64,000 bases of DNA from Nannobrachium achirus (Eukaryota > Chordata > Actinopteri > Myctophiformes > Myctophidae), in assembly GCA_963921795.1 (NCBI GenBank), contig OY997661.1, positions 41,699,966 to 41,763,965 on the forward strand, read 5' to 3'. The notes below the pieces were generated by a model, which had not been told where the DNA came from, ran no database searches, and saw nothing but the letters and a program-made list of their open reading frames with translations. The translations under genes and the position numbers were made by a program. Shown piece by piece: positions 849 to 64,000 of this stretch; positions within the stretch are counted from its first letter, which is position 1; every line of letters begins with the position of its first letter.

Positions 849-3800
849 GTGGTTTTTTAGGGATGGGACCATATGAAACATTCATATCACCGTTATTGGG
901 ACCAAAGAAATTTACGATGTTATCGTGATAATCAATATACCCTAAACATCAATTATCCTAGGGCCAAAGATTGCAGATCTACAAGCTCACAACGCGTCAC
1001 AACACGTTGTGAGCTTGTAGATCAGCTATTTTTTGGCAAAGAGATTTGGTAGAGAGTGAAAAAAAGACTCTATTAACTCTTTTAGTGCCACCCGTTCACC
1101 ACTAGAGGGTGCCCCAGGTGCCATAGAAAATCCCATAGAGATATGCTGGTATATGCAGAAGCCCTGCAGCCATGACTTGCCTGAACACTTTCCTTTGTGC
1201 ATGTACAGGAAGAGGATGAAGTTAGCTTGAAGTTAGCTATTGGCTACCAAGCATTTTAGAAGCCTTATTTTCGTCAACTTAGCCATGATTAAACCTTGCA
1301 CACCTCATGCATGGGAAAAAAACAGAGAAGAATGAGCTCTAAAAAATCCAATGCAATCCTGGATTGCATTGGAGTGGATTTGTGCAGTTTGTTCACAGCT
1401 TTCAAACAAAAAAATCCGATTGGAAATCCGTTCAGGCATTCTTGAGATAATCGCCATTATGTTTTACATGTTATGTAAACAAACATGGCTGCCCTGTATG
1501 TTAGATGGGGTTGTATGGGGGTGGAACATGCAAAATCGCGATTGAAATCATGTTCACTAGATTTGATGGGGTCCAAAAAAATCTTTTTTTTTTTAAAAAT
1601 TCAAAAAAAAAATTTTTTTTTTTTTTTTTTTTTTTTTCAAAAACCGAATTTATTCGGTTTTGGCATATGTAATACGTTTTAAAAAACCGAACTTTTTCGG
1701 TTTTGGCACTGGATGAGTTAAGGAGGACTTCACCACTTTTCAACCTATCTTCATATAATAGGTCCTCACTAATGTTCATAATAAAATAGATCAATATTTG
1801 AGCGGTGCTAACCACTCCTATAGACCGCTTTTTTACCAAAACTATGATATCACAAAAGATGATGACATGAGTTCGCTAGACCAATGAAACACTTCAATTC
1901 TGTTGATCTGTCCATGATGTCATAGTCACAGAGGCACCCGATTGGTTAACCCTGATTTAGAACGCGTTTAGGCCGTGTAAAATACGTCATAACGCGTTTA
2001 GGCCGCGTAAAATACGTCATAAAAAAATTATTGAGCGGTGCTAACCTTGAATTTCAAAATTGTATTAGATGAATATCACTTATAAGCGATAAAATAACCA
2101 CACTTTTAGACAGACTGTGGAAAATCTTACAGGTTATAAATGATAGGCAGCTAAGACAAGTTTAAAATACAAATGAACAGACTTTGAAAAACTAAAATAT
2201 TCATCTTCTGGCCTCTTCTCGCCTCTCTGGAGGCCTCTCTGGAGGTAAATAAGGTCACTTATCATTACACTACGACACTCTTACAAGTTACAATCCGTAG
2301 CTTGGTCAACTAACTGATGAGAAATGACAATAAAGACTTATATAGTCTGAGCAGACCTCTAGACTGACATCATACACAACAAAAACAATATTGCCATGCA
2401 TGCCTATCAACACTGATTCGCGCAGGAATTAGTTTGCACCGCTCACTTCGCACAGGTGCGATTCTTTTCTACTCTGTCCAAGTCTCCTATAGGAGAGCTG
2501 TGGGAAGTTCAGAATTTATCAATATTTTTGAAAAAAATATTTAGATTTTTATTATCGCGAGAACAATGGCTTCCACTTTAACATTGCAACTTTTCAGGAA
2601 TAGAAAGCCTGCAGTTTCTATTAGCTTGGATTCCCAATCGATGATGTCACAAGACGATGGGTTTCTGACCTGCCCACAGCCCTCCTCTGAAAAAAAAAAA
2701 AAAAAGACATTTTTTTAGTGAGGACCAATTATATGAAGATAGGTTGAAAAGTGGTGAAGTACTCCTTTAAAGGGGAGTTTCGGTCAAAAACGACTTTCCT
2801 ACCTTTAAAATGTTGATTCAGGAAGCTTCTGGGTTGATCCTGGTTAGTTTTGACCCATAGCAGCATTTTGTTCTATTTTGGATTTTCTCCCCTGCACCCC
2901 ACGGCTCCAAACGGCACCTCTTGGGTCACTCCATAATCCGGTTATTATTCTCGCTCAAAACTCACTTTTCTCGCTCGGTCTCAGTCCCTGGTAACGTTGT
3001 TAGCATATACGAGCTACAACAGCTCCTGGTCGCCGCCATGTTTGTTTACAAGAAGCTCAACTCTGAACTCTCAGCCCTGCAAGAGAAACACTGGGAAATC
3101 CCATACCCGTTGGGAAACGCGCGTTCGCGAGCTGCTGCTGCTGCTCACAGCTCCACCCCCCTCCCCCCACAGCCTGTTGTGCCTGTTGAGGTAGACAAGA
3201 GGCTACACCATACATCACTCTGCAGACTTTGTCGACATAGTTACATCTTTTTTCTTTGGCTAAGAGCATTTTTGTGTTTTATTGTTCGTCGCGCGTCGGG
3301 GAGTCACGCGATACAAAACGTGATTTCACAGTGTTCTCTCCTGGGCTGAGAGTTCAGAGTTGAGCTAAAAGTAAACAAACATGGCAGCGACCAGGAGCTG
3401 GTGTAGCTTGGATTTGCTAACAACGTTACCAGGGACTGAGACCGAGAGAGAAAAGTGAGTTTTGAGCGAGAATAATAACCGGATTATGGAGTGACCCAAG
3501 AGGTGCCGTTTGGAGCCGTGGGGTGCAGGGGAGAAAATCCAAAATGGAACAAAATGCTGCTATGGGTCAAAACTAACCAGGATCAACCCAGAAGCTTCCT
3601 GAATCAACATTTTAAAGGTAGGAAAGTCGTTTTTGACCGAAACTCCCCTTTAAGTGTGTTATTTCCAGGTCCTGACTGATCCCAACTCATCCAGGCGGGG
3701 TCACCAGAGGTAAAGTCTTTACCTCTGGTGACCCTGCCTGGATGAGCAGAGTTTAGATTCATGTTACATGAGAGTGAAACCAAAAAATAATAATTTCAAA

Positions 3801-4768
3801 GCTGCTAGCATACATCTGACCTCTCTGTCTCTCTAATGGCGCTTTTCCTCTCTGTGGTAGCGGCTCAACTCAGTTCAGTTCTACTCGCCCTTTTTCTCGA
3901 TTTGACTTTAGGCTAAAGTACCCGGTACTCTTTGGTATCGCCTCCGTCAAAGCTGAAAGTGAGCTGAGAGCTAAAGGTGAAATACAAGCTCACAACGTGA
4001 TCTACAAGCTCACAACGTGATCTACAAGCTCACAACGCCTCGCGCTGCGAGGCGTTGTGAGTTTGTAGACCGGCTATTTTTGGCAAAAGAGCTTTGGTGT
4101 AGAGAGGAAAAAAGAGCAGACTAAGTACAGAGTGAAAGGTCATGTTTATTAAGTATTGACGGTTCAAGTGGTTAAATACCGGTATCTGAAAACACAAATT
4201 GACATGAATCCAAATTACACTGATGACTGTGCTGTCAAACAATGAAACTATGTAGAATGAACAGATTGTGGGGGTCCCTGCTTCATCTCTCTCTTAACTA
4301 AGGGGTGGTCCCTGGCCTGAAAATGTTGAAGACCCCTGGGGACATTGCTATAACGACCAGCTACTATTGAGGCCGGGGGTCTTGCTGTATCTGCACTGGA
4401 AAGTAGAGTTGAGCCTGTACCATGCAGTGGATAAGTCTCTCCCTCTCTCTCCCTCCCTCCCTCCATGTCATTCAGTCTCTGACTATCTCATCTTTCAGAT
4501 GTTGCTTTGTAAGTCCCAAGTAAGCGTTGCTTTATGTTTTTTGAGCTGATGGTTCGTTGCTTCGTGCAGCTTCAAGTAAATGTGACGTACTGTATACTGT
4601 CTGCATTTATTCCTTTTTAAATCCAGGTGAAACCATTGCTGCCTCCGGCAAAGTCCAAAGACGCTGGAAAGATCTGTGTGGTTATCGACCTAGATGAGAC
4701 ATTAGTTCACAGCTCTTTTAAGGTAAGGTTGACCACACATGTTAAGGGAGGGGCGCTGTTTTTCAGGC

Positions 4769-4802
<34 letters not shown>

Positions 4803-10800: not shown

Positions 10801-12634
10801 CAAGTTCAAAGTTAAAGGAGGAGGTTGAATAATTTCGAGCACAATCATAGCTAATAACCATTTAAGAGCTGGAAAGCATCTGTGTCACATTTTAACCACT
10901 TTAACCATCATTTTAAATGTTGGCTATTCAAAAATAGCAGATATACAAGCTCATATGGCATCCCAAGTGTTAACACATGGTGCCAACCCCCGAGTTTCCC
11001 GAGTTTGGGCCGTTTTTGAAGATTTTCTTTTCCCAAAATATATATATATCCACAAGTTTCCAACGCCCCATAGTGCATTGCGCAGACGTCTGCACCGAGC
11101 TTCCGCCGCCGATTTACAAGCTCACAACGGGTTGCATCTGCGACGCGACGTGAGCTTGTATGTCTGCTGTTAAACCCGGAAGTTTGGTCCCGATAGTCTC
11201 CAGTAAACTCCCGCGGAAACTTGTGGATATATATTTTTTAAATGTGGACCTCCACAAATGTATTAAGCATGATCGCGATGGCGAAATTGCATGTTTAACC
11301 CCCATAACAAACCCCATCTTTCAAACATGGCAGCCATGTTTGTTTACATAATGTAAAAACATAATGGCTGATATCTCATGAATGCCTGAATGGATTTCCA
11401 AGCAGATTTTTTTGTTTGAAAGCTGTGAACAGCTTTTTTTTTTTTTGGTGCATGATCTAGGCATGGGAGTGCATGATCTGTGCTCTATGAATTACATAGA
11501 AGTCTATGGCGACCATGGCATCTTGGACCTTCAAAGAGATTTAATTGATTGCAACAAATGCGTTAATGGGTTACACATGTTTAAATGTTTTTTCCCCGCT
11601 CTCTGTCTGTCTTTGCCCCAGTATGCAGACCCTGTATCTGACCTCCTGGATAAGTGGGGCGCCTTCCGGTGTCGCCTGTTCCGAGAGTCGTGCGTGTTCC
11701 ACCGCGGGAACTACGTCAAGGACCTGAGTCGCTTGGGCCGCGACCTCAACAAGGTCATCATCATCGACAACTCCCCCGCCTCCTACATCTTCCACCCTGA
11801 CAACGCAGTAAGAGACGCCTTGCATGCACTATTAATCATGGAAGAATTATTCAGGTCAGGCTGACTGAGCAACACCACACCCTCCTCCTCCACATGTATA
11901 CTGTCTGTCACTGATAAAACCTTTGACAGGGTTCCCACGGTCATGAAATTCCTGGAAATATTTTGAAATTAGAAAAAAAGAAATCCAGTACTGGGAAAGT
12001 TTTGGAATTGATCAAGGGTCCTGTAAGGTCCTGGAAAAAATAGCTATGCATTGTCTTTGGTTGTAGATCTGCTATTTTCACAATAGAACTGTGTTATACA
12101 AAATTCCTCAACTCTTAGTGCTCGTCAGGGTGCCGGGTCCCCAGTTAAAACATGATTATTTCGGGGGTCACGGCCTGAAAAGGTTGAGAACCACTGGCAT
12201 ACACTTCCTGTCTTTGGGCATTGCTCATAGGAGTAAGCGACCTGTTATTGAGCTGAATTATTGTTATATAGTCCTATAAATTGGGTTAAATATTCTGGAA
12301 AAGTTTTGGAAAAGTTTTGAAAATGAATTGGTAAAGATGTGTGGGAACCCTGTGTCTGTCACTGATAAAACCTTTGAGCTGGCCAGAGTTAAAGGAGCCA
12401 CACCATGCTTTAAAAAATATATATATATTTTATATAAATATTAAATATTGGTCCATAATACGGTTTTATGCAGGTTTTAGCCTAAACAACCACTCAGATA
12501 TTGAAATTTCATGTTCCGTCTGTCTCTAATTCCAAGCTATTTCAGATGCAATACCAAAATGCCTTTTGTTGACAACGGGGCACTGTCTTTGGGCTAAAAT
12601 TGGAACGATACCATTAGCATGATACCATGGCACC

Positions 12635-48883: not shown

Positions 48884-51800
48884 AAGAGCCATTTTAGCCA
48901 TCTTGTTATTTAATTGATGATGTCACCAAAAGGCAGTGTTGTAAAAAGTACTCACATTTTATACTTAAGTAAAAGTATCAATACAGCAATATAGAACTAC
49001 TCCGTTACAAGTAAAAGTCCAGAATTCAAAATGTACTTGAGTAAAAGTATGAAAGTATTGGCATCAAAATGTACTTAAAGTGCCAAAAGTAAAAGTACAA
49101 AATGTTTGAAAATAGCAGATCTACAAGCTCACAACGCGTCGCATCGCGACGCGTTGTGAGCTTGTAGATCGGCTATTTTCAAATAGCCAAGGGATAAAAT
49201 AAGGCTAATATATGTTTTTTTTATATTATAATGTATAAATGCAAAGTAACTAGTAGCTAAGGTTTTCAAAAAATGTAGCGAAGTAAAAGTACAATATTTG
49301 GATCCGAGATGTAGTGGAGTAGAAGTGAAAGTATTAGAAATTGGAAATACTCAAGTAAAGTACAGATACCTCAAAATTGTACTTAAGTACAGTACTTAAC
49401 CCTCTAAGGCCCACGGTTGTAATATTACAACGTTTGTATTTTATCCAAAAAAAGGTTTAAATCATTTTATTTTAGCTCCCCCTACCACCTAAACACCACC
49501 ATTGGATTCTATTGTTTAGTATTACAATGCCATTGGCCACAATATTTGCATATAAATACCCCCCACAGGGGCTGACATTCACACCCGCCACACCCGCTGA
49601 AATTCCAGAGTTTTGACGAACAACATCTCACTTTTTCATGGAAGCTATACCTCAAAAAAACATAAGTAAAATGCCTGTACTATTCTTTTTGGTGATCATT
49701 AGAATGTCTAGAACATGTACATATGTTATTATTTTGAAAAATATCCCCCATATGTAAATTAGAGCATGATTTATGATTTTTGATTTATGGCTATAAAATC
49801 TTACAAAAACATTTTTTTGAAAAAAACATTACATTTTCCTCTTAATAGGACTCCTACAACACCATCTGATTTTTTTCAATTTTTTATTTCAAGTATTTCT
49901 TAATGCGGGCCTTAGAGGGTTAAGTAAAAGTACTTAGTTACTTTACACCACTGCCAAAAGGCATGGTCAAGGCCAGGTTGCCTAGGTATTAAACAGGCTC
50001 TCTAATCAGCCTCAGGTGTTGCCAGTGGCAGAGGCATGTTTGACTGCGTTCATGAGCGCTATGTTTGACTGTTCATGAGAGCTGTGGTCTGGTAAGCGTT
50101 TGTGTATATTGTGGGGGGGAGTGGGACTGAGTTACTAGGGCCCAAGGTGGAGGGGCCTGGAATTATTTTATACTTTAGCTATTGAAAACTAGACCAGGTC
50201 ACCTGGTTGTGCCAGACCCGCAATGAAAACTAGTATGGCACTGAACTAACACATGAACACACAGGATTTTACAGTCTCAGCAACAAAGCGTAGTGAGCTT
50301 GTAGATCGGCTGTTTTCACTAGTATGGCACTGAACTAACACATGAACACACAGGAATTTATAGTGTCAGCAGCTCGTCAGCCAACTCAACTCAGCTGGTC
50401 CCGTACAGGTGACAGCACTCAAGGCAATCAGCCGAGCAAGGGAAGGGAGGGGCAGATGAGCAGTCTGAGGAAAAGAGGGACCGACCGACAGACAGACCGA
50501 CCGACCGACAAAGGCTTTTCTAGGCCGACCCCCTGGGTCTGGCAAATAGCAGATATACAAGCTCACAGCGCGGCACCGAGTGCCACACTGCGAGCTTGTA
50601 GATCTATTATATTTGAAAATTCGTGGAAAAATCTTTAAATGTAGGCCTATGTATTTTTTAAGCAAACATTTGTAACTCATATTTTGCTTCTGGGGTGGTC
50701 CCTGGAACTAAATATTTTGAGATGGGGATCCGTGGCCAAATATATATATCATTTTGGGGGTCGTTCACATGAAAATGTTTGAGCACCACTGACATAGGTT
50801 TTTTTTTTTTTAAACCTTCAAAGACTTTCACGATTTCTCAAAAATAGCAGATCTACAGCTGGCAGCGTGGCACTCGGTGCCGCGCTTGTGAGCTTGTATA
50901 TCTGCTATTTTTCAATAGTTAAAACACAAAATAACACAGTGAATCCTTGTACCCAGGGCCCAGAATTTGTTGCGACCATAGACTGTATAAAAGATATGGA
51001 CAATGCGAAGCCATTGGTTTCTATGCAGCGCAAATGACACAATATGGGCGCTTGGCATGGGTGTTGCCATCATAGATTGAAATGCAAACGGGGGAGGCTA
51101 TTGGCTGCCAACGGTCACGTGCAACCGCAGGGATACATGGGAGAATGTGGTCGGAGCCTCCCGAAATGCAGCACACGAAGAAGAACACAGCCGACTGGTA
51201 TCAGTTTAGTTGGTCATGCACCCCGCAACTTTATCATCAATGTTAACATAAATGGGACCTTATTTTCACAAAACGCATATCATCGAGATTGAAAGGCAAT
51301 TTTTAACTAGCGATAGGAACCATAAAGTATTCATGAAAATGTTAATTAAGGTTAGAACACGAAAGGGGAAAATGAATGGGATCCAATGGAGAACAATTCT
51401 TTTTGCAACCGGCCAGGGGGAAAACAGCACAACTAGCGGCCAATCATAGGAAGTTTTAGTTCCGTATTGGGCTCATTTTAAATCGGCGGAACTCTCCCGC
51501 TGGGGTTGCGACACCCCTGGTCCTTACCTGTAATGGTCACGAGGAAGGCCACCGAGTCGTCCTCGGTGTCACACACGTACTCCCCGGTGTCGTCCGTCGT
51601 CGTCATGGGGACGACGAGCCGCCGCACGACACCGTCCGCCTCCAGGATGAGACAGGAGCTCTCCTCCACCTCCAGGCCGTCCTTGTACCAGCGAACCGAG
51701 GCGTCCTCCTGGGAGACCTCGCAGGTGAGCTCCAGCCGCTCGGAAGCCAACTGGGTCAGCTCCACTTCAGACTCTTCGGGTGAGACGATTCGGATCGGAG

Positions 51801-57800: not shown

Positions 57801-60194
57801 GTTGCGTTCGCGTTCAGGAGAGTTTGGACAAGGCAATTCTCTTGAATGGTATGGCATGGAAATGCCCCAGAATTTGCATTTCTTTCACCATAGTAAAAAC
57901 TGCATTCATGGTCTGGAATGGGCACTCTTTTACACACGGATAAAAGGGCAGGGGCTCATCTTCCCTCTCACTCTTGCTGGTACCCTTCTGTCAGATATCC
58001 ATTTTTGAGGTTTTTGATTTTTTTTGGCATAAATCAGGGCTATTGAACACCCTTTACAGCTGAGTGTTGGTTAAAATAATATTGAACCAATGGAAAGTAG
58101 TAAAACGTGCTTGGGACAAAACCTCCTAACTCCACACTTTCTGCCAAACCAGCTAACTCCACCCGAATGGCCCTCTCTTTTCTTCATAAATATGTGCTAT
58201 TGAACACCCTTTACGTCTCTGTGTTGGTTCAAATAATATTGAACCAATGAAAAGTAGTAAAAAGCCCTTTGGTCAAAACCTCCTAACTCCACTTGAGCTC
58301 ATTTTACAGAAAATGAACATTTTGGAGCATATCTCGGCCCGACAGCAGAGATATGCTCCTGACACTTTCCTCCAACCCTGCCTGCATTCTCTTCTTCACC
58401 ACTCTTCCACACCATGGATAGTTACTGCCCAACACCGCAAATTCTTTATTATTATTAACTATGTAGGTTAAATCATTTGTCCATGTGTTGCCAGCTGATC
58501 AGGGACATGCTGGGCCCCTGATTCAGCCCAGGAAAAAGAGTTGTAGAGGCCCTCATTGCGCGCTATACAGAGAGATCTCTCTCTATAGCACTGCTGCTAC
58601 TCAAAGATTTGCCATTTCAGATCATGACAAGTGACAAGCCAGTGGGCCAATTACATGAGTTATATTTCGTCATTGTCGGGTGGAAACCTTGTATGTCCAA
58701 AACCATTTTTAAAATGATTTAAACAGCCGATCTACAAGCACACAACGCCTCGCGGTGCGAGGCGTTGTGTGCTTGTAGATCGGCTGTTTTCACTACTTTT
58801 GTACAACAGCCTTGTATGATGAAGCAGGGCTTTGCTTTGCGAAAAAAATTACACATTTTAAACTTGGAGATACGAGGTTTCTGCCCAACAGTGACGATTT
58901 ACTTTGTTGGCCGCCCCCAGCCCCCAGGATGGAACGAAGGCCGACATTTTTATTTTTTTTCCCCTAATGGCCGGCCTGTACCGGACGTTCGGGAGTTGTC
59001 CCACTTTTCCCAATGGCCAGCACGTCCCTGCTGCTGATATGTTTTAACAGATTACCTCTGACATTGACGGTGAATGCCATGTCGTTGTCGCCAGCCTTGC
59101 AGGTGTAGATGCCAGCATCCGAGGCGTCGGCAGAACGGATGATCAACCTCCTCATGGTGCCCTCTGCCTGCAGGGTGATGTTGTCACTGGGATGGATCTC
59201 ACAGCCGTCCTTATACCTGTGGGTAAGTGAATAGTCCATCAGATCCAGAATTCAAATCCAGAATTGACTTCAAAATCCTCTTAATAACATACAAACCATT
59301 ATGGACTGGCCCCACTGTATATTTCAGAATTGCTACACGCAAAACCTAATGTTAAATCCCTCAGGTTTTCTAACAAATGTCTTCTAGACATCCCTGTATC
59401 CAAACTCAATTAATTGATGTTTTTAAGAACCTGCTGAAAACTCTTTTGTTTTGTATACATTTTATGTTATGAAGGTTTTTTTACCTGTCTCATGGGCCCT
59501 GTTTTATCTTGCTTTAACTGAGGGGGGCGGCCTCTTGGTTAGACCAGGTTAACATTCACCAGGTTAGCATTCACCAGTGTCGGCACTTTAGCTACTTACC
59601 AGGCTAGCATTCACCAGCATTAAGTTTTACTGAGGTTATGGCAGTGACATGTTACCACTTTGAGACTCACTGGTGTAGCAGAGTATTTCCAGCAGGGCCG
59701 CCGATGGGGGGGGGGGGGGGGTCTTTTCCCCCCTCCCGGAGGCATTGAGCTTGTATATCTGCTATTTTTCGATAGCTAAATAGCTATAAAATAATTAAGG
59801 CCCCTCTACCTTGGGCCCTGGTAACTCAGTCCCACTCCCCTTCCCACCCCTTGTGACACCCCTGCGTGTCTATGTTAACTAATGATCATTTGTCATACCA
59901 CACAGCTGGAGCGTCCTCTCGGGAGACCTGACAGTAGAGAACCACGGGGTCCAGCTCCATGGCACTCTTATGCAGGTCCTCTTCAGGAATGGGAGTGAAC
60001 TCCACCACGGGTCCTGGAGGAAAGAAGAGGGCGTGAGGGGACAAATGGTGTTTGTAAGCAACTGGAGGTGAGGACTGACGGGGGAGGGGGGAAACTTTGT
60101 CTCCTGGAAAGTGTTAGAAAACTGTTTGTGTTACATTTCGGGCACGCATGTTGTCGTCTTGACACCTAGAAGTCCCACACACACCACACACGCA

Positions 60195-60281
<87 letters not shown>

Positions 60282-62352
60282 GCACACACACACACACACA
60301 CACACACAGCTTTTGTTGCTAGTGACCATTTGTTAGTAGTTTTTAAATGTCTCCACCACTTGGTACCCTGGATATTCCATTTTAGTTGGTTGAAACCAGT
60401 GGTTCTCAACCTTTTCTGGCCGCGACCCCCAAAATAATCATATTTTAACTGGGGACCCCCAAAATAATCATATTTTAACTGGGGACCCCCCTACCCTGAC
60501 AAGCACTAAGAGTTGAGGCATTAGATTTTGAATAACACGGTTCTATTGTGAAAATACGCCTTGTGCTCACAACATGTAGATCGGCTATTTTCACAATTTC
60601 TGTAATATTTGACAATTCGGCCAAAGTTTAATTTAACATTTTAGAGGTAAGTCCTTAAATCGTCACTTTTAAAATGTGATGATAACCTCTATACACTAGG
60701 GCTGTCTTCGACACAGGATTTATGAAGTCGATTCGAGTCGCGGGGGTTAATCCGACGCGTCGACGAATCGTTTTATAGTCTACTTTGTGTAAAAAAAAAA
60801 AAGAGAAAAAAGTGTTGCTTTAAACCACGTCAACATAATAGAATAATACATTAAGAGATGAATTGAATACACAGTGTTTTCGGTGAGCACAAATGTTATC
60901 TGCATAGCAGTGTACAACCATAGAGTTATAACACACCGTTAAAACAAATAAAACATCTCCGCTGTTTCAACTCTGCCCCGTCTCTCGGCAGCGTGCAGTT
61001 TAGATGAGACATTCGCGAACGATTCCGGTCTCTTGAACGGCTCTTTTAAATGAACGATGGGATCCAGTCCGCAGTCGCGGGACACAGAGCACTGACAGAG
61101 TAATGAGTCAGTGTCGAGAACGGATTCATTTCAGAAAAGGATCATAAAAAGGGGGAGGCACAGCTCCCGTTAGAGCCAGCAGTGTGGACATGTCATGGAC
61201 GCAAACACAGCGAAACACAATCATTCATCATGGATTACAACACTGGAACAATTCAGAAGCACTTTAATTAGAAAATGTAACTTGTAGCCTACACTTGTGT
61301 ATGTTAATTTGACTTTAGAAGATTGTTTACTACTTCGTGGACGCGCGTTTGTGCTGTGGCAGGTTATTTAATATGGGATTTTGACAGCGTGCTTCCTCCT
61401 CTTAACGGAACACTGTCCCGGCTCTGAATGTTTTAACGAAGCGGCGGTCTGAACCGTTCTGGCCGTTCCGTCTCACTTTCAACCCGACGCTGGTGCGAGA
61501 CAATAAATAACTGTTCGCCAATTGCTACTTCTCATTGGAAGTACATGACCACACCAGTCCAGCAGTGCACCGCAGTACTGGCAGTAGTAGGCTAACTGGT
61601 GATATAAAAAAATATATATTTTCGCTTCGACTCAAACAATTGTTGTCGATTCCCGGGGCTTAAAACGACGCGTCGATTCGTCGATTTTTAGAAGACACCC
61701 CTACTATACACTTAAACTTATGTTGGCTTGTTTACCTTGGAGCGAGAAAACAAAGTTTCACATTAAGTTAATCCTCTGGGGACCCCCCCAAAATAATCTG
61801 GGGACCCACCTGGGGGTCCCGACCCACAGGTTGAGAACCACTGGTTTAAACTGGAACTCAACATACAGTTGCAATAAGTTATCAAAATGAGTAGAAACGA
61901 CAAGCCGCAAGACAACGAGGCAATTAGATGGAAAAACGATGTTTAAAAAAAACGACATCGACCCTGATGACAAGCGATTAACCGAAATGTGTTTGTTTAA
62001 AACCAACACGTTCCCTTAGGCTTAGCATCTCACTTCTGCACAACAAAGAACACCAAGTCTTCAGCTTTATCATCACCTTTGACCTCGACCTGAAACGTCG
62101 CGCAATCGTCGGCCGTCACGCACGTGTACGCGCCCGAGTGAGACCAAACGGCCGATTGGATAATCAGCGTCCTCCTGTGGCCTTCCTCGAGCAGCTCCAC
62201 GCCCGGATGGTTGAAGACCTGCTCGCCGTCTTTGTACCAGTACACCTGGCCGCACGGGTCCGTCAGGTAGCACTGGAGAGCTATGGGTTCGCCCTCCTCG
62301 GTGGATTTGGTCCGCTCGCCCTCTGGGATCTCGTAGAACTTGACGGGAGCCG
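22981..62352 (-). CDS. obsl1: obscurin-like 1 (obsl1), C-terminal 16 Ig domains, 5' incomplete
   Basis: Nineteen minus-strand exons join in frame into about 1,450 residues that are nothing but tandem I-set Ig domains (pattern C-x(11-13)-W-(Y/L/F)KDG ... L-x-I ... D-x-G-x-Y-x-C). Every domain-border intron is phase 1, as in titin, obscurin and OBSL1. The last Ig domain runs directly into a stop codon, and no SH3, DH-PH, IQ or kinase module follows, which is why OBSL1 is preferred to obscurin or SPEG. OBSL1 is a cytoskeletal adaptor at M-bands and at intercalated discs, and in other cells it acts with CUL7 and CCDC8 in the 3M complex; the titin- and myomesin-binding N-terminal domains would lie right of the window. 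The paralogue (a or b in fish) cannot be decided here. Confidence 0.75.
23390..23660. repeat. inverted-end repeat containing minisatellite
   Basis: GGTTCGAACTCCCG near 23408 is inverted at about 23625. Between them are about four units of a CACCAGCGTCGGCAGGTTAG motif and then GGTTAGGGTTAAGGTTAGG tracts. Related pieces occur at 40710-40810 and 59545-59640. Confidence 0.6.
23766..24195. mobile_element. foldback related to 8374-8993
   Basis: Arms about 23766-23910 and 24045-24195 are inverted copies around a centre near 23990. The phrase CTGAATCCATTGCAATCATT is shared with the copy in the ctdsp1 intron. Confidence 0.65.
24301..24567 (-). CDS. obsl1: obsl1 exon, Ig domain 15
   Basis: 267 bp, phase 1-1, donor GTCAGT. 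It starts [16 protein letters not shown], with [20 protein letters not shown] and [14 protein letters not shown]; the F-strand Cys is Ile. The domain start VKPLRD matches the FVKPLED consensus of its neighbours. Confidence 0.9.
24568..25658. repeat. intron with hAT-like remnant, hairpin and dispersed repeat
   Basis: A pair CAGTGTTTCTCAACC / GGTTGAAAAACAC marks a remnant at about 24652-24889. A compact hairpin lies at 24947-25009. The stretch 25105-25520 is a repeat also found at 35430-35650 (ATCCAAAGCGACTTACAATA type). No gene. Confidence 0.55.
25659..25763 (-). CDS. obsl1: obsl1 exon, second half of Ig domain 14
   Basis: 105 bp too short to stand out as an open frame. It reads [20 protein letters not shown] and then [14 protein letters not shown], donor GTAAAC, acceptor CAG to the right. 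It completes the domain begun at 28009-28170 (162 + 105 = 267 bp). The F-strand Cys is replaced (GEIRFVAKD). Confidence 0.85.
25891..26479. mobile_element. family R element with 89-bp internal tandem array
   Basis: Bounded by TGCCAGACCCAGGGGG and by GGTGACCTGGTCTAG. The interior holds four copies of an 89-bp unit containing GAAAACAGCCGATCTACAA, one half of the hairpin module. The inverted copy at 50189-50544 has only two units. Confidence 0.65.
26540..26722. repeat. family A core fragment
   Basis: Contains inverted pieces of the GGTCCTTGACATGAA and AGACATTTATAGAATCAGG segments of family A and two degenerate hairpin arms (about 26498-26530 and 26708-26722). Confidence 0.5.
26724..27295. mobile_element. 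second copy of the TGAGCGGTGC element
   Basis: Matches 1799-2445 at nearly every base, including a partial extra left terminus (26724-26882) before the complete element (26883-27295). Confidence 0.7.
27472..27991. mobile_element. foldback, 0.5 kb, next to an obsl1 exon
   Basis: Arms of about 220 bp are inverted copies (for example GACTAGACCAGGATTTCTCA near 27508 and its complement near 27940) around a GC-rich centre at 27690-27765. Its right edge lies about 17 bases from the donor side of exon 28009-28170. Confidence 0.7.
28009..28170 (-). CDS. obsl1: obsl1 exon, first half of Ig domain 14
   Basis: 162 bp. It starts [16 protein letters not shown], with [20 protein letters not shown], and ends TIKIRTE plus one base, donor GTAGGG. 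A 0.5-kb foldback ends about 18 bp from the exon. Confidence 0.87.
28240..28505. repeat. D-type core with full hairpin, no host ends recognised
   Basis: Symmetric core from GTCGGATGGAAACCG to TTTCTGCCCGACAGTGA. The hairpin at 28317-28401 has AACAGC and AAGCACAC variants in both arms. Confidence 0.7.
28526..28934. mobile_element. hAT-like element family E (copy 1)
   Basis: Ends TAGTGGTGGGAAAAAGTACT and CTTTACACCACTG with exact 8-bp duplication ACAATGGG (28518-28525, 28935-28942). Only a half hairpin remains (28675-28699). Confidence 0.88.
29369..29843. mobile_element. hAT-like element family A-prime
   Basis: Ends CAGGGGTGTCGCA and TGTGACGCCCCTG. The interior matches the core of TTAA-type family A, including the full right hairpin (29678-29750) and a half left hairpin (29404-29435). 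The right end is 11 bases from an obsl1 exon. Confidence 0.75.
29855..30008 (-). CDS. obsl1: obsl1 exon, second half of Ig domain 13
   Basis: 154 bp, acceptor TAG right of 30008 in phase 0. It reads [20 protein letters not shown], then [20 protein letters not shown] and SCNLEVY. Together with 31469-31581 this gives 267 bp, one domain. The donor GTACGC is followed by only 11 bases before a transposon terminus (29843). Confidence 0.88.
30237..30508. mobile_element. foldback in obsl1 intron
   Basis: Segments around CACGGGCCTCTCCAAGTT (30306) and AACTTGGAGAGGCCCGTG (30410) are inverted, and the similarity continues outwards to CCTCCATTGTAACCGAG. Termini are not clear. Confidence 0.6.
30715..30860 (+). 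repeat. tRNA-headed SINE
   Basis: A-box-like TGGCCTAGCGGTCCGGGCAC and B-box-like GGGTTTGAATCCCG are spaced as in a tRNA, followed by a pyrimidine-rich CTCTCTATCTCTCCCC tail body. It lacks a good cloverleaf, so it is a SINE and not a tRNA gene. Confidence 0.6.
30861..31345. repeat. CCATATATGGAGATCC-rich dispersed repeat
   Basis: Repeated variants of CATATATGGAGATCC and TCACAGTGATGTCAGAG. Parts recur at 54300-54560 (AGACGCCTCAGGGCGACA) and at 40-160 (TGATGTCACAGTGATGTG). Confidence 0.55.
31469..31581 (-). CDS. obsl1: obsl1 exon, first half of Ig domain 13
   Basis: 113 bp. It starts [16 protein letters not shown] and ends VEVKWLK, donor GTAGAA in phase 0. The B-strand Cys (LECEFSRP) and C-strand Trp are present. 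It is joined to exon 29855-30008. Confidence 0.88.
31582..32471. other. obsl1 intron without recognised features
   Basis: No coding exon, hairpin copy or clear transposon terminus was found here; a T tract lies near 31687. Confidence 0.4.
32472..32738 (-). CDS. obsl1: obsl1 exon, Ig domain 12 (both core Cys missing)
   Basis: 267 bp, phase 1-1, donor GTACCA. It starts [16 protein letters not shown]. The B strand reads [10 protein letters not shown], the C strand [10 protein letters not shown], the F strand [10 protein letters not shown]. Neither disulphide Cys is present, but Trp and the LTLEDTG turn are kept. Confidence 0.88.
32739..33819. repeat. obsl1 intron with one isolated hairpin
   Basis: A hairpin with a divergent outer arm pair (GGTGGCCGATCTGC / GATCGACCAC) lies at 33032-33098. 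The rest shows no gene or identifiable element. Confidence 0.5.
33820..34369. mobile_element. chimeric A / A-prime element
   Basis: The left end is the TTAA-type CCCATTTAGACTGGG (TTAA at 33816-33819), but the right end is the hAT-like TTGTGACGCCCCTG of family A-prime. Hairpins at 33870-33920 (collapsed) and 34180-34252 flank the shared core. Confidence 0.65.
34370..34891. mobile_element. hAT-like element family F, flanked by a direct repeat of about 105 bp
   Basis: Ends CAGGGTTCCCACGG and GTGTGGGAACCCTG. Left flank 34260-34369 and right flank 34892-34994 are diverged copies of the same segment, differing mainly in the length of a C run. The interior carries a family H piece and a half hairpin (34588-34618). 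Confidence 0.8.
34996..35262 (-). CDS. obsl1: obsl1 exon, Ig domain 11 (B-strand Cys missing)
   Basis: 267 bp, phase 1-1, donor GTAAGG. It starts [16 protein letters not shown]. The B strand reads [10 protein letters not shown] (Thr for Cys), the C strand [10 protein letters not shown], the F strand [10 protein letters not shown]. The coding strand is very GC-rich, so the opposite strand has long open frames without meaning. Confidence 0.9.
35430..35650. repeat. dispersed fish repeat (ATCCAAAGTGACTTACAATA type)
   Basis: Shares order and sequence with 25105-25400, including CAACAATACAACAAATGCAT-like text and GGGTTTAGGTGGAGTCT. Confidence 0.6.
36020..36467. mobile_element. broken family C element with inserted foldback
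   Basis: Half hairpin at 36027-36062 with the TCCACTAT flank of family C; right end ATAATCGTGACAGCCC at 36452-36467. Between them a foldback (36210-36411) with arms CACTTCACCTCTGGGACAAC and the inverse. Confidence 0.6.
36475..36744 (-). CDS. obsl1: obsl1 exon, Ig domain 10 (F-strand Cys missing)
   Basis: 270 bp, phase 1-1, donor GTGAGT. It starts [16 protein letters not shown], with [20 protein letters not shown]. The F strand reads [10 protein letters not shown], lacking both the Tyr and the Cys. A family C transposon end lies seven bases from the exon. Confidence 0.9.
36783..37182. mobile_element. hAT-like element with D-type core (copy 2)
   Basis: Ends CAGGGGTTCCCAAACTT and GGAAAACCCCTG with exact 8-bp duplication AAATAGGA (36775-36782, 37183-37190). 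Only the left part of the D-type core remains; the hairpin is reduced to AACAGCAGATCAG. Confidence 0.85.
37183..37865. other. obsl1 intron, mostly featureless
   Basis: No exon or transposon end seen; a T tract lies at 37651-37675. Confidence 0.4.
39054..39480 (+). repeat. two tandem copies of a tRNA-headed SINE
   Basis: Copies at about 39054-39240 and 39268-39470 share GTAGTGTAGTGGTCAGTGCC-type A boxes and CAGTTCAAAC-type B boxes, each preceded by a CTTTTTCTTTTTTC tract, so one carries the other as a duplication. Confidence 0.65.
39560..40120 (+). repeat. two further tRNA-headed SINE units
   Basis: One at about 39562-39640 (AGTGTAGTGGTCAGGGCA, GGATCGAATCTCG) and one at 39862-40110 (CAGTGGCCTAGTGGTTTGAG, GGGTTCAAACCTGG). 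The second has a longer body ending near GAAAGGCCCAAGAACACG. Confidence 0.6.
40308..40574 (-). CDS. obsl1: obsl1 exon, Ig domain 9
   Basis: 267 bp, phase 1-1, donor GTAAGT. It starts [16 protein letters not shown], with [20 protein letters not shown] and [16 protein letters not shown]. The motif FVKPLED is common in obscurin-family Ig domains. Confidence 0.9.
40805..41079. mobile_element. family B fragment, half hairpin
   Basis: Begins at the half arm GAGCTTGTAGATCGGC (40808) and runs through the B interior to CTGAAGACCCCCTG, 17 bases from the donor side of exon 41097-41366. Confidence 0.65.
41097..41366 (-). CDS. obsl1: obsl1 exon, Ig domain 8 (B-strand Cys missing)
   Basis: 270 bp, phase 1-1, donor GTAAGA. 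It starts [16 protein letters not shown]. The B strand reads [10 protein letters not shown] without Cys, the C strand [10 protein letters not shown], and the F strand [12 protein letters not shown]-family element ends 17 bp from the donor side of the exon. Confidence 0.9.
41409..41878. mobile_element. hAT-like element with D-type core and full hairpin (copy 3)
   Basis: Ends CAGGGTTCCCCAATTC and TTGGGGAACCCTG; flanks CAATAGAG / CAATAGCA. The D-type core (about 41525-41765) carries a perfect-arm hairpin at 41605-41683. Confidence 0.8.
42095..42560. repeat. remnant related to the 14088-14660 element
   Basis: Shares CGATACATGGACGATATTGG and the TTTATC..TAGACC order with 14140-14420, but the ends are eroded. 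Confidence 0.5.
42671..43125. mobile_element. family C element with hairpin (copy 2)
   Basis: Ends TAGGGCTGTCACGATTA and ATTGTGACAGACCTA; flanks GAAATTTG / TAAACTTG, partly matching. Hairpin at 42895-42958 with a very short apex. A short tandem expansion of ATTATGTCAAATAA units lies at 43015-43090. Confidence 0.8.
43158..43433 (-). CDS. obsl1: obsl1 exon, Ig domain 7
   Basis: 276 bp, phase 1-1, donor GTACTG. It starts [15 protein letters not shown], with [20 protein letters not shown] and [15 protein letters not shown], so both core Cys and the Trp are present. Confidence 0.9.
43636..44557. mobile_element. TTAA-flanked foldback, AGGACAACTC ends
   Basis: TTAA at 43632-43635 and 44558-44561; ends AGGACAACTCCGCC and GGGCAGAGTTGTCCT. 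Inner arms 43975-44120 and 44398-44545 are inverted copies. Confidence 0.75.
44564..45064. mobile_element. intact hAT-like element family B with hairpin (copy 2)
   Basis: Ends TAGGGGTCTTCAAC and GTTGAAGACCCCTG with exact 8-bp duplication CTTTAAGT (44556-44563, 45065-45072). The target is the right border of the preceding TTAA element. Hairpin at 44715-44781. Confidence 0.88.
45125..45403 (-). CDS. obsl1: obsl1 exon, Ig domain 6 (F-strand Cys missing)
   Basis: 279 bp, phase 1-1, donor GTAAAC. It starts [15 protein letters not shown], with [20 protein letters not shown]. The F strand reads [10 protein letters not shown], with Leu in place of the second Cys. An acidic run (EEEEG) sits in the D-E turn. 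Confidence 0.9.
45583..45626. repeat. TA/GTATA microsatellite
   Basis: Alternating GTATATA and TATATA units in the obsl1 intron. Confidence 0.85.
45780..46100. other. GC-rich island without gene
   Basis: A CG-rich stretch (about 45895-46060) between AT-rich flanks, with open frames on both strands of arginine-rich, low-complexity protein and no recognisable family. It could be a CpG island or the body of an unrecognised repeat. Confidence 0.35.
46262..46520. repeat. tandem duplication, unit about 130 bp
   Basis: Two neighbouring copies share GACTGTAGAGATACTGTGTA, GGTGGCGCTAGA and GTAGGAGCAGTGTCCAAAAA. The GGTGGCGCTA phrase also appears in the cluster at 37866-40254. Confidence 0.65.
46766..47322. 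mobile_element. family A element, reverse orientation, two hairpins
   Basis: TTAA at 46762-46765 before CCCATTTAGGCC; right end CCTAAATGG followed by TTTTAA. Hairpins at 46802-46848 (collapsed) and 47191-47260. It ends about 30 bases from exon 47354-47629. Confidence 0.75.
47354..47629 (-). CDS. obsl1: obsl1 exon, Ig domain 5 (B-strand Cys missing)
   Basis: 276 bp, phase 1-1. It starts [16 protein letters not shown]. The B-strand position reads [10 protein letters not shown], so Ile replaces the usual Cys. The C strand reads [10 protein letters not shown] and the F strand [10 protein letters not shown]. The core disulphide cannot form; cytoplasmic I-set domains tolerate this. Confidence 0.9.
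47697..48134. mobile_element. TTAA-type foldback, AGGACA termini (copy 2)
   Basis: TTAA at 47693-47696 and 48135-48138. Arms mirror each other around GACACAATAAGCC segments. Same family as 9593-10005 and 56277-56703. Confidence 0.75.
48215..48490 (+). repeat. tRNA-headed SINE
   Basis: Head 48220-48295 has A box TAGCTCAGTCGG and B box GGTTCGATTCC, followed by a 200-bp unrelated body. The head looks like a class of tRNA with GTCCCCGGG 5' stem, but the pairing 3' end is poor. Confidence 0.7.
48601..48628. repeat. CA microsatellite
   Basis: About 14 CA units; a TA repeat lies at 48850-48880. Confidence 0.9.
48934..49953. mobile_element. hAT-like element family E with hairpin and nested TTAA element (copy 2)
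   Basis: Ends CAGTGTTGTAAAAAGTACT and CTTTACACCACTG with exact 8-bp duplication CCAAAAGG (48926-48933, 49954-49961). Hairpin at 49105-49183 with 38-bp arms and one mismatch. A second element is nested at 49400-49919. Confidence 0.9.
49400..49919. mobile_element. piggyBac-like short element nested in family E
   Basis: Ends CCCTCTAAGGCCC and GGGCCTTAGAGGG with TTAA on both sides (49396-49399, 49920-49923). No open frame for a transposase. Confidence 0.85.
50189..50544. mobile_element. family R element, two internal units
   Basis: Inverted relative of 25891-26479, from CTAGACCAGGTCACCTGG to CCCTGGGTCTGGCA. It has two tandem units where the other copy has four. One unit retains GAGCTTGTAGATCGGC. 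Confidence 0.65.
50977..51504. mobile_element. element inserted with 8-bp duplication GTTGCGAC
   Basis: The 8-mer GTTGCGAC occurs at 50969-50976 and 51505-51512, both belonging to the A-prime end. The insert begins CATAGACTGTATAAAAGATA. No clear inverted ends, so it may be a SINE-like insert. Confidence 0.6.
51528..51803 (-). CDS. obsl1: obsl1 exon, Ig domain 4
   Basis: 276 bp, phase 1-1. It starts [16 protein letters not shown], with [20 protein letters not shown] and [18 protein letters not shown]. The donor GTAAGG is followed after a few bases by a transposon terminus (51519). Confidence 0.9.
52271..56170. mobile_element. 3.9-kb foldback with arms of about 1.5 kb
   Basis: Terminal motif AGTATCTGGCCTATACTCC at 52271 is inverted at 56170. 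Inverted similarity continues inwards to about 53948 and 54715 with several insertions and deletions. Open frames in the arms are short and broken, and no transposase family was recognised. The centre carries an unrelated fish repeat (53950-54205). Confidence 0.75.
53950..54205. repeat. widespread fish repeat in the foldback loop
   Basis: Text such as GGACTGCATTTACAG, GCACTTTACAATTCACCC and TCTTGCTCAAGGACACTTCG marks a dispersed repeat common in teleost genomes. Confidence 0.6.
56277..56703. mobile_element. TTAA-type foldback, AGGACCACTTTG termini (copy 3)
   Basis: TTAA at 56273-56276 and 56704-56707, arms mirrored around CATAAGTCACATCTGCCCAT. Third copy of the family. Confidence 0.75.
56708..57310. 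other. obsl1 intron, no gene
   Basis: No exon or full element seen. A TTGCACCCCTA terminus at 57310, 31 bases from exon 57342-57617, suggests an eroded hAT-like insertion. Confidence 0.4.
57342..57617 (-). CDS. obsl1: obsl1 exon, Ig domain 3
   Basis: 276 bp, phase 1-1. It starts [16 protein letters not shown], with [20 protein letters not shown] and [16 protein letters not shown], a full canonical Ig domain. Its acceptor AG is separated from a transposon end (57626) by only eight bases, so branch point and pyrimidine tract must lie in transposon sequence. Confidence 0.9.
57626..59030. mobile_element. family K element filling an entire intron
   Basis: Ends CAGGGACGTGCAGAG and CCAGCACGTCCCTG. 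The interior holds a variant hairpin at 57693-57757 and a D-type core with full hairpin at 58721-58790. Only 8 and 25 bases of the 1,438-bp intron lie outside it. Flanks CTGCAATT / CTGCTGAT match in part. Confidence 0.7.
59056..59216 (-). CDS. obsl1: obsl1 exon, second half of Ig domain 2
   Basis: 161 bp that begin with the last base of the split Trp codon and then read [39 protein letters not shown] and AFTVNVR. Donor GTAATC lies to the left. The intron inside this domain (59217-59898) holds no gene; it contains a minisatellite-like CACCAG stretch at 59545-59640 and a hAT-like element end at 59864. Confidence 0.88.
59899..60013 (-). CDS. obsl1: obsl1 exon, first half of Ig domain 2
   Basis: 115 bp with acceptor AG right of 60013. 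It reads [20 protein letters not shown] and on to [15 protein letters not shown]. It ends within the tryptophan codon of the C strand (TG|G), donor GTATGA. The domain is completed by exon 59056-59216; together they give 276 bp, the length of a single-exon domain in this gene. Confidence 0.88.
60178..60308. repeat. long CA/CG microsatellite
   Basis: About 130 bp of CA units with interspersed CG, in the obsl1 intron. Confidence 0.95.
60397..61843. mobile_element. hAT-like family H element with nested element
   Basis: Ends CAGTGGTTCTCAACC and GGTTGAGAACCACTG; flanks GTTGAAAC / GTTTAAAC, 7 of 8 matching. A degenerate half hairpin lies at 60551-60590. The middle is interrupted at 60697-61703. Confidence 0.8.
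60697..61703. mobile_element. nested hAT-like element, exact 8-bp duplication
   Basis: Ends TAGGGCTGTCTTCGACAC and AAGACACCCCTA with exact duplication CTATACAC (60689-60696, 61704-61711). One kb, rich in GACGCGTCGA motifs, no transposase frame, no hairpin module. Confidence 0.85.
62077..62352 (-). CDS. obsl1: obsl1 exon, Ig domain 1 of the visible series
   Basis: 276 bp, phase 1 at both ends, donor GTGATG to the left and acceptor AG to the right. It starts [12 protein letters not shown]. The B-strand Cys (ALQCYL), C-strand [10 protein letters not shown] and F-strand [10 protein letters not shown] are all present, so this is a complete canonical Ig fold. An extra Cys pair (DPC, DDC) is also visible. 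Confidence 0.9.
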
Positions 62353-62894
62353 CTATATATGAGCGTTTGGGAGTTGGGTTAGTGTGTGGCAGATGAGACA
62401 TGAGGAGTTTAGAAATGGCATTTTTTCCAATGTATGTCTCATTTTGAAATGGGACTCGAGGTTGAAATGGACTTCTTTTAACCACTTTACCCAGGGGTAC
62501 CTATTTTGGGCAGTCATTGTAGGTGGATATTTGTCATGAATTTTTAAAATAACTAAAAGTATTGTAAACAAAAAAGAAAGAAAACAAGAGGAAAAATTGC
62601 AAAAAAACAGTAAATCTACAAGCTCATAACATGCAACAATGTGAAGCGTTTATTTGTAATGGAAATGGAAAATTATATATAATTATATATGTGGTTAAGC
62701 GATCGTCTAAATATTTGAAGAGTACCTATTGTTTTACTAATTTCATGAAGTCCAAATTAAGTCGACTGTGTATGTGGCATTTTGCAATGATGATTTAGGT
62801 TGATTGTCATTATGGTGGGATGTAGGGTGGTTGTGATGGCATGATATGTGTATAGGAAGGGGGTTATGCATACTGTATACGTGCCAGCTCTTTT
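62353..62894. other. obsl1 intron, no gene
   Basis: Only an isolated hairpin half arm (62611-62632) is recognised. The exon for the preceding Ig domain lies beyond the window. Confidence 0.4.
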
Positions 62895-63489
62895 AAATTT
62901 AGGCCTAGAATTATTGAATGCTTTAACCAGTGAAAAATAGCAGATATACAAGCTCACAGCGCGGCACCGAGTGCCGCGCTGCGAGCTTGTAGATCTGCTA
63001 TTTTTGAAAAAGTAGTGAAAATGGGTGCAAATCTGTCAATATATGTATTTTCAAAGCGAACGTTTGTAACTAAAATTTTGCTTCTGGGTGGTCCCTGGAA
63101 CTAAATATTTTGAGATGGGGGTCCGTGGCCAAATAAATATAATTTTGGGGGTCCTTCACATAAAAAGGTTTGAGAACCACTGACACAGTAGTCTCTCAAG
63201 AACAGACTAACTGAGCTCCAGTTAAGTGAAAATGACCTTTTCTTTGACGACGGCTGGCCAGATTGCTGACATAGAAACATAGTTTTTTTTCAAAAAACCT
63301 TAGAAGGATTCAAAAGACACTTATAGAATCGGGTCAAAATTCAAATTTTCACGATTTTTCTAAAATAGCAGATCTACAAGCTTGCAGCGCGGCACTCGGT
63401 GCCGCGCTGTGAGCTTGTATATCTGCTATTTTTCAATAGTTAAAGCATAAAATAGTGATACACAATAATGTGTACCCGTTCTGAATGGG
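62895..63489. mobile_element. family A element, reverse orientation, two full hairpins
   Basis: Right end GAATGGG followed by TTAA (63490-63493); left end eroded. Hairpins at 62932-63006 and 63362-63431 both keep the GCGGCAC / GTGCCGC apex. Confidence 0.78.
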
Positions 63490-63537
63490 TTAAATGAAAG
63501 AGCGCCTCCGCGCACACAAACACACATACAGTACTGT

Positions 63538-64000
63538 CAGGGACATGCAGAGAATGTTAGAGAGGCAGGGGCTGAAATTTCTAAAAGGGCCTTTTGGTGG
63601 AAATATTGAAAATAGCTGCGACGCATTGTGAGCTTGGAGGTCGGCTATTTTTCAGTGCGTGACACCACACTAAACTAAACATACTCAAGTCAATACTGGA
63701 GATGTGGCGTAACGGCATGGATTTCTACACAGAGAGGGCAATTCTTTCAATATAAGCTGCATTCAAGTTCAGGAGAGTTTGGACAAGGCAATTCTCTTGA
63801 ATGCTGCCTTCAGGTATGGAATTGAAAGAGGGCGTTTGCATTTCTTTCACCATAGTAAAAACTGCATTCATGGTCTGGAGAGGGCACTTTTTTTACAGAT
63901 GGATAAATGGGCACAAGCGTAATTTGTAAAGGGTTGATGGGTTTAATAAACCCAAGGGCCCCCCTACTGGTGACAGTATTATAAATTCATAGGCTATTAT
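63538..64000. mobile_element. family K element, cut by window edge
   Basis: Starts CAGGGACATGCAGAGAATGT and follows 57626 onward for more than 100 bp. Its hairpin (63605-63650) lost most of the left arm. Confidence 0.7.

What the first reader, a model, noticed from the sequence alone, without database searches (positions are those of the whole stretch)
962..63650. One hairpin module recurs about 50 times inside many unrelated transposon families
A palindrome with arms AGATCTACAAGCTCAC / GTGAGCTTGTAGATCT, usually 45-85 bp, is present as a hairpin at about 962, 4018, 11108, 15821, 17608, 18330, 18757, 20255, 20685, 21801, 22666, 24947, 28317, 29678, 33032, 33870, 34180, 41605, 42895, 44715, 46802, 47191, 49105, 50545, 50840, 57693, 58721, 62932, 63362 and 63605, plus some 20 half copies. 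Its hosts include hAT-like elements with at least seven different terminal repeats and TTAA-type elements. The hosts share no other sequence, so common descent of the whole element does not explain it. It may be an independent mobile hairpin that enters transposons, or a structure captured repeatedly because it helps them to spread.
Basis: partly seen in the sequence, partly recalled or inferred. Interest (0 to 1): 0.88.

Follow-up and report, generated by a model that had tools for sequence, protein, structure and literature searches.

The report
Shared hairpin riding many fish transposons
The same roughly 70-90-letter DNA hairpin sits inside many different jumping-gene families of one fish-like genome; it seems to have been carried in by other small transposons and kept palindromic by copying between its own two halves, rather than jumping by itself.

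Summary
The window has 69 hairpin arms against 0.48 expected, and an exact 20-base arm occurs 54,361 times in its 1.66-Gb genome. Ten hAT-type elements with 8-bp duplications and at least seven terminal types hold it or a remnant, beside TTAA-ended elements and a MITE, D. A hairpin that moves by itself is not supported: 104 full hairpins show no duplication at the palindrome edge beyond chance. 'The hosts share no other sequence' is only partly true: 66 of 316 arms have a TTAA-type end nearby (control 2 of 316). That carrier sits in two hAT families and, one-sided, in a third; D sits in three. For C, H4 and G no carrier end was found. The arms change together family by family, the palindrome runs on into family-specific sequence, and the 3-base loop occurs in both orientations in 5 of 7 families. 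In families A and D, not in B or clearly in C, the hairpin diverges more slowly than its flanks. Best reading: an old palindromic cassette spread by nested carriers and hAT amplification, maintained by template switching. Its source and any function stay open.

The parts
975..1024 (+). full hairpin, B15-type carrier flank
3978..4072 (+). full hairpin with extra tandem left arms, B carrier
11110..11165 (+). full hairpin, F context
15821..15907 (+). perfect hairpin, 42+42 bases, in hAT 15713-16124
17616..17658 (+). shortened full hairpin inside a TTAA-type element nested in a hAT
18330..18408 (+). hairpin 1 of TTAA element A18
18756..18826 (+). hairpin 2 of A18, inverted relative to hairpin 1
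20255..20333 (+). hairpin 1 of TTAA element A20
20685..20757 (+). hairpin 2 of A20
22664..22746 (+). hairpin in hAT C22
28315..28403 (+). hairpin of a D MITE, loop GGT
29678..29750 (+). hairpin, A-type unit
33038..33093 (+). diverged full hairpin, F33 context
33881..33913 (+). collapsed hairpin 1 of the hybrid A element
34174..34258 (+). hairpin 2 of the hybrid A element
41617..41671 (+). hairpin of D MITE nested in hAT 41409-41878; loop ACC, inverted relative to D28 and D58
42893..42960 (+). hairpin in hAT C42
44712..44784 (+). hairpin inside the TTAA-type element of the second B copy
47193..47263 (+). full hairpin of TTAA element A47
49105..49183 (+). hairpin in hAT E49
50543..50613 (+). hairpin, A-type; another element lies in the arm flank on its left
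58721..58789 (+). hairpin of D MITE nested in hAT 58500-59030, loop GGT
62933..63005 (+). one of two hairpins of TTAA element A63
63362..63432 (+). second hairpin of A63
10892..10954 (+). TTAACCACTTTAACC end plus one hairpin arm (10939-10954)
12908..12923 (-). half copy, C-type
13392..13407 (-). half copy, A-type
13689..13704 (+). half copy, A-type
21809..21824 (+). one recognisable arm of a collapsed D hairpin in hAT 21597-22030
24984..24999 (-). one recognisable arm next to a D fragment
26179..26375 (+). three half copies in an 89-bp tandem array
29407..29422 (-). half copy near a CAGGGGTGTCGCACC end
34594..34609 (-). half copy, H4-type
36043..36058 (-). half copy, C-type
40807..40822 (-). 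half copy, B-type
46822..46837 (-). one recognisable arm of a collapsed hairpin in A47
50293..50308 (-). half copy, 89-bp-type unit
50888..50903 (-). one recognisable arm, A-type
59745..59760 (-). half copy, A-type
62612..62627 (+). half copy, weak
63628..63643 (-). one recognisable arm
15713..16124 (.). hAT-type host TAGGGATGGGACGATA, duplication CACCCCTT 8/8
17356..17817 (.). hAT-type host CTGGGGTCTTCAAC, duplication CTTTAGGC 8/8
17516..17710 (.). nested TTAA-type element (TTAACACCACTTGAACC ... GGTTCAAGTGGTTA; second TTAA mutated)
44674..44869 (-). nested TTAA-type element in the second B copy (one TTAA mutated)
22452..22856 (.). hAT-type host TAGGGCTGTCAC, duplication CCCACAAC 8/8
42671..43125 (.). 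hAT-type host of the same family, duplication 6/8
48934..49953 (.). hAT-type host CAGTGKTGTAAA, duplication CCAAAAGG 8/8
21597..22030 (.). hAT-type host CAGGGGTTYYCAAA, duplication CTATAGAC 8/8, holds a D MITE
41409..41878 (.). hAT-type host CAGGGTTCCCCAAT, duplication 6/8, holds a D MITE
58500..59030 (.). hAT-type host CAGGGACRTGCTGG, duplication 7/8, holds a D MITE
210..591 (.). hAT-type element CAGTGGCTCTCAAC, duplication 7/8, degenerate hairpin (H4)
60397..61843 (.). hAT-type element CAGTGGTTCTCAAC, duplication 7/8, degenerate hairpin (H4)
18276..18870 (.). TTAA-type element A18, two hairpins (left TTAA not exact)
20199..20800 (.). TTAA-type element A20, two hairpins (left TTAA mutated)
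46762..47330 (.). TTAA-type element A47, one full and one collapsed hairpin
62894..63493 (.). TTAA-type element A63, two hairpins
33816..34358 (.). hybrid element: TTAA-type left end, CAGGGGCGTCACAA-type right end

Best explanation
An old palindromic cassette that does not move by itself. Step 1, shown for some hosts: it lies inside small carrier elements, a lineage ending in TTAACC(C/A) and a MITE called D, and these inserted into hAT-type elements. Step 2, supported: hAT family members carry the cassette at one place, so it was amplified as a passenger. Step 3, inferred from several signatures: replication template switching between the arms copies one arm onto the other, which keeps the palindrome, extends it into family-specific flank, flips the loop and in some families slows divergence. 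Step 4, weak: occasional exchange at hairpins swaps flanks and makes hybrids. How families C, H4 and G took it up is not resolved; lost carrier ends or the exchange of step 4 are the candidates.
For: Carriers: a TTAA-type end lies within 120 bp outward of 66 of 316 arms, 2 of 316 on reversed flanks; the arms are not independent, 41 of the 66 belong to family B clusters. B consensus flanks both end in GTTCAAGTGGTTAA, inside a hAT with an exact 8-bp duplication. The same flanks lie in a different hAT, 15713-16124 (right flank score 13, 1 of 400 shuffles). D lies in three hATs with different ends. Passenger: arm at the expected place in 12 of 14 C and 13 of 18 E matches (4 of 6 and 9 of 14 without chosen places). 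No own mobility: 7 of 104 against 8.3. Template switching: 41 cells changed on both sides, 0 of 500 shuffles; arms 30.0/34 alike within a copy, 26.1 between families; palindrome extends 12 or more bases past the 16-mers in 56% of copies, 10% between families; loop in both orientations in 5 of 7 families, 0 of 20,000 trials. Slow divergence: A unit, non-CpG, 8/409 against 131/1564, p=6.5e-7; D 4/176 against 30/477, p=0.046. PMC8604942 (passages) and PMC8794818 (abstract) describe such marks for template switching. Exchange: 2 of 104 full hairpins have flanks of two large carrier clusters; hybrid element.
Against: C, H4 and G, and the 14 of 104 full hairpins with neither flank in a cluster of four or more, mostly show no carrier end. 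Arms of different copies of one family are as alike (30.4/34) as arms within a copy (30.0), so the coupling is seen at family level, not as ongoing repair of each copy. In B the hairpin is less conserved than the rest in 5 of 6 pairs, and in C hardly more. Pairs with a double change (10; 22 of 500 shuffles reach it) and pair types (416 of 500) are weak or not raised. Cross-family flank homology is secure only within A; A with E (0 of 400; 1 and 37 of 1000 for two A consensuses) was one of 378 and 190 pairs. Selection for structure would also give covariation and slow divergence.
Confidence: 0.5

Rival explanations
1. Functional module: the palindrome is a site that helps transposition, for example one bound by a dimeric transposase domain, kept by selection and taken up by several superfamilies because it raises their mobility.
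For: Slow divergence in A also at CpG sites (5/76 against 13/64, p=0.02) and no shared substitution in the A right-half hairpin (0/71 against 22/214 columns; left half 0/71 against 5/236, not significant). An arm follows a piggyBac-type transposase in six near-identical copies (96-100%), with further copies on the 5' side in five of the six. The piggyBac cysteine-rich domain dimer binds a palindromic 19-bp internal repeat (PMC7351741, passages).
Against: In that gene the 5' copies follow a splice-donor-like site and the 3' arm follows the stop codon, so probably intron and 3' UTR. The other five of six 3' flanks read, about three families, have no arm in 700 bp. The palindrome is about four times longer than the known site. 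Private changes are also fewer (A 13/485 against 88/1620), which points to a mutational cause. B shows no slow divergence.
Confidence: 0.2
2. Exchange at hairpins: palindromes break or stall forks, and repair from another hairpin copy swaps flanks, so hosts acquired the module without a carrier inserting.
For: 2 of 104 full hairpins with flanks of two large clusters; hybrid element 33816-34358; 108 unpaired arms, some ending near the palindrome centre.
Against: Mixed flanks are rare, and the large families have one constant pair of flanks. Nested carriers explain B and D and part of E.
Confidence: 0.15
3. Independent mobile hairpin that inserts into transposons.
For: Eight of 104 full hairpins have both flanks unique in the sample (two of these look like A or B/E pieces by eye).
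Against: No edge duplication; family-specific palindromic extensions; one place per host family.
Confidence: 0.05
4. Whole-element common descent: all hosts descend from one hairpin-bearing transposon.
For: A units share an interior across copies with different ends; A and E share some flank sequence.
Against: At least seven hAT terminal types, TTAA-type ends and D.
Confidence: 0.05

Closest known systems
Highly conserved domains shared by SINE families, and the V domain inside the MITE MER6 (PMC6887750: abstract and section 2.4 read)
   Same: A short conserved module in otherwise unrelated mobile elements, riding the amplification of a DNA transposon.
   Different: Here a palindrome shared among DNA transposons of several kinds, with compensatory change between arms.
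Inverted repeats homogenised by replication template switching (PMC8604942 passages; PMC8794818 abstract)
   Same: Arm homogenisation and loop inversion; low divergence in some families.
   Different: The passages seen treat single loci; this is a dispersed family with 54,361 exact 20-mers in one genome.
Nested non-autonomous DNA transposons (recalled, general knowledge)
   Same: Carrier inserted in host, then amplified with it.
   Different: Unrelated carriers and hosts bear the same palindrome.
piggyBac internal palindromic repeat bound by the cysteine-rich domain (PMC7351741, passages)
   Same: Palindrome in TTAA-type elements.
   Different: 19 bp near the transposon tip, against about 70-90 bp; the TTAA lies 46-69 bases (about 100 on the far side of B) beyond the 16-base arm; binding untested.

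Membership tests
hAT-type non-autonomous element (hosts) | 8-bp target duplication with short terminal inverted repeats | tested here: met
   5 hosts 8/8, 3 hosts 7/8, 2 hosts 6/8; 1 further candidate (34370-34891) has none
hAT-type non-autonomous element (hosts) | mobilised by a hAT transposase | not testable with these tools
   no assay; no hAT transposase search was made
TTAA (piggyBac-type) MITE (carriers A, B, 10.9 kb, part of E) | TTAA target site at both ends | tested here: inconclusive
   consensus ends carry TTAA, but in the window copies at least one TTAA is mutated or missing in most
TTAA (piggyBac-type) MITE (carriers A, B, 10.9 kb, part of E) | terminal repeat shared with an autonomous piggyBac in this genome | not tested
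Separate MITE family (D) | own target duplication | tested here: inconclusive
   ATTT on both sides in one host lineage (W 58.6 kb, L064); ATAT elsewhere is self-complementary and could belong to the terminal repeat
Independent mobile element | target duplication at the edge of the palindrome | tested here: not met
   7 of 104 against 8.3 expected
Template-switch-maintained inverted repeat | arms homogenised | tested here: met
   at the level of families; not seen as closer pairing within single copies than within the family
Template-switch-maintained inverted repeat | loop (spacer) inversion with similar arms | tested here: met
   5 of 7 families, 50 hairpins; one family has a single hairpin
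piggyBac CRD-binding internal repeat | 19-bp palindrome close to the transposon tip | tested here: not met
   TTAA ends 46-69 bases beyond the 16-base arm in A, B.out and E (consensus); palindrome about 70-90 bp
piggyBac CRD-binding internal repeat | bound by the transposase cysteine-rich domain | not testable with these tools
   needs a binding assay
Known structured RNA | match to an Rfam model at its curated score | tested here: not met
   0 matches in the window

The most novel reading that the evidence does not exclude
A cross-superfamily transposon module: one palindrome that hAT, TTAA-type and other elements have each taken up because it raises their own spread, as a shared protein site or a replication-stalling hairpin, kept by selection as well as by template switching.
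Probability: 0.15. Interest if true: 0.88.

Novelty: new variant of a known kind. Interest (0 to 1): 0.6.

Why it matters
One module in unrelated DNA transposons at this copy number is a natural experiment. It could separate hitchhiking, repair-driven maintenance and selection for structure in vertebrate mobile DNA. It also warns that covariation and slow divergence in a repeat need not mean function, because template switching can give both.

Tried and rejected
Empty or rejected: Rfam (none); viral contigs with two patterns (none); phages (none); the one hit in prokaryote genomes, read over 601 bases, shows one isolated match without a second arm or known flank, and I take it for chance. Ten paper searches: the two by sequence found no paper, and the listings of the others showed none on this hairpin; the library lacks most subscription papers, and Repbase and Dfam could not be consulted. 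Flank clusters merged AT-rich flanks and were not used. A hand-typed loop table misread family H4 and was replaced. That the piggyBac gene's hairpins are subterminal sites was weakened.

Limits: the C1 sample is chosen by an exact 20-mer, so it favours intact arms. The divergence tests use window copies only, found by whole-element similarity: eight A copies (two with most of the hairpin deleted), three or four D copies. 60 stretches were fetched around the listed places from C1:73562 to C1:3458770, out of 100 listed and 54,361 counted; the later listed places were not fetched. The sample holds identical duplicates (L010 and L012 share a stretch; L010/L011 and two places in L014 look identical), counted apart. 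The arm finder required one of three exact words. One search used 50 of 104 full hairpins. One search scored 40 of 2449 candidates, 116 of 952, 40 of 358. No related species could be searched.
Full report
What is there. The window is part of an unnamed 1.66-Gb assembly. Five of five open frames scanned match immunoglobulin I-set domains, one of them below the curated cut-off; the one frame compared with solved structures matches titin, myosin-binding protein C and obscurin-like domains among others. So the window is probably in an obscurin- or titin-like gene of a vertebrate. The 16-base arm occurs 69 times with up to three mismatches, 0.48 expected. Of the 30 listed positions 24 have both arms, five one, one none. 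The exact 20-mer GATCTACAAGCTCACAACGC occurs 27,213 + 27,148 times genome-wide, its reversed control 0 times. The window holds 11 of these among 69 arms, so the genome may hold some 340,000 arms, a rough extrapolation from one rich window.

Hosts. Ten hosts were delimited by terminal repeats and 8-bp duplications: five exact, three 7/8, two 6/8. Their ends fall into at least seven types, all hAT-like. In 60 stretches of chromosome C1 plus the window I find 316 arms, 104 full hairpins and 108 unpaired arms, including some identical duplicates. Families A, B, C, D, E and H4 recur on C1; a further family, G, was seen only there and its host was not classified. Fourteen full hairpins have neither flank in a cluster of four or more, and eight of these have both flanks unique. 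An arm is at the expected place in 12 of 14 C and 13 of 18 E matches; leaving out those chosen through the 20-mer, 4 of 6 and 9 of 14. Two of the five E matches without an arm (28.6 kb, L027) look like remnants by eye.

Carriers. Both B flanks end, in consensus, in GTTCAAGTGGTTAA, inside a hAT with duplication CTTTAGGC; in the single copies at 17.5 and 44.7 kb one TTAA is mutated. The same flanks lie in a different hAT at 15713-16124, where the TTAA itself is not intact. A elements end in TTAACCCATTTAG-like ends; three in the window have two full hairpins in opposite orientation, and A47 has one full and one collapsed. E has the TTAA-type end on one side. A TTAA-type end lies within 120 bp of 66 of 316 arms, against 2 of 316 on reversed flanks; 41 of the 66 are in the B clusters. 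D, with ends near CGTCRTTGTCGGGTGGAAACC, is nested in three hATs; one host lineage shows ATTT on both sides, while ATAT elsewhere is self-complementary and proves no duplication. No carrier end was found for C, H4 and G.

Not a mobile hairpin. A direct repeat of four or more bases at the palindrome edge occurs in 7 of 104 full hairpins; re-paired flanks give about 8.3.

How it stays a palindrome. On 20 aligned hairpins (17 distinct) 90.6% of cells pair and 41 are changed on both sides, which none of 500 shuffles reaches. The number of pairs with a double change (10) is reached by 22 of 500, and pair types are not raised. Arms are 30.0/34 alike within a copy, 26.1 between families, and 30.4 between different copies of one family, so the coupling is at family level. 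The palindrome reaches 12 or more bases beyond the 16-mers in 56% of copies, 10% between families. The loop occurs in both orientations in five of seven families, in 50 hairpins of standard length. In A units non-CpG sites differ from consensus in 8/409 hairpin cells against 131/1564 outside (p=6.5e-7), CpG sites in 5/76 against 13/64 (p=0.02); in D 4/176 against 30/477 (p=0.046), CpG 1/36 against 10/63 (p=0.053). Private changes are fewer too: A right half 13/485 against 88/1620 (p=0.011, same on the gap-free subset); A left half p=0.03, gap-free 0.068; D p=0.0066, gap-free 0.062. Against this, in B the hairpin is less conserved than the rest in 5 of 6 pairs, and in C hardly more. Loop inversion and arm homogenisation are the marks described for template switching (PMC8604942, passages; PMC8794818, abstract). 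Selection for structure is not excluded.

A transposase gene with the module. The genome has 116 scored piggyBac-type frames of 952 candidates. Of six 3' flanks read, from about four families since three look alike, one has a hairpin arm about 65 bases after the stop codon of a frame matching PF13842. That stretch matches six transposase copies at 96-100%, and five of the six have further copies on the 5' side in the same orientation; one such stretch, on C9, holds a full hairpin. An open frame with a splice-donor-like site lies before it, so those copies are probably in an intron. This is a carrier with its own transposase, not proof of a binding site; the comparison with the palindromic repeat bound by the piggyBac cysteine-rich domain (PMC7351741, passages) is a hypothesis.

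Verdict. A real and very abundant palindromic cassette, spread in part by nested carriers and host amplification and kept palindromic most likely by template switching. Its uptake by C, H4 and G, its first source and any function are open.

Noticed in passing
G000:C2:71346413-71843994: Sixteen of the listed piggyBac-type transposase frames, all on the + strand, lie within about 0.5 Mb.
   Followed up: no
window 26159-26439 and L015 from 7135: Half hairpins have become units of tandem arrays (89-bp and about 52-bp units).
   Followed up: no
window 2767-3653: TTAA-flanked element with 311-base arms 96% complementary and no hairpin module; other TTAA elements with AGGA-type ends at 43632-44561 and 56273-56707.
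   Followed up: no
L015, L022, L024, L032, L041: The B host contains a minisatellite with many units about 31 bp apart near its left end.
   Followed up: no
window 50161-50540: An element (ACCAGGTCACCTGG...CCTGGGTCTGGC) lies within the arm flank of an A hairpin and carries a half hairpin itself.
   Followed up: partly
G000, 40 places: E host left ends 98-100% identical on many contigs, which suggests a recent burst of this hAT family; apart from the window's own copy, whether those copies hold the hairpin was not read.
   Followed up: no
L010, L011, L012, L014 (C1:71500-137300): Identical hairpin-bearing stretches recur within 66 kb: a local duplication or an assembly repeat.
   Followed up: no
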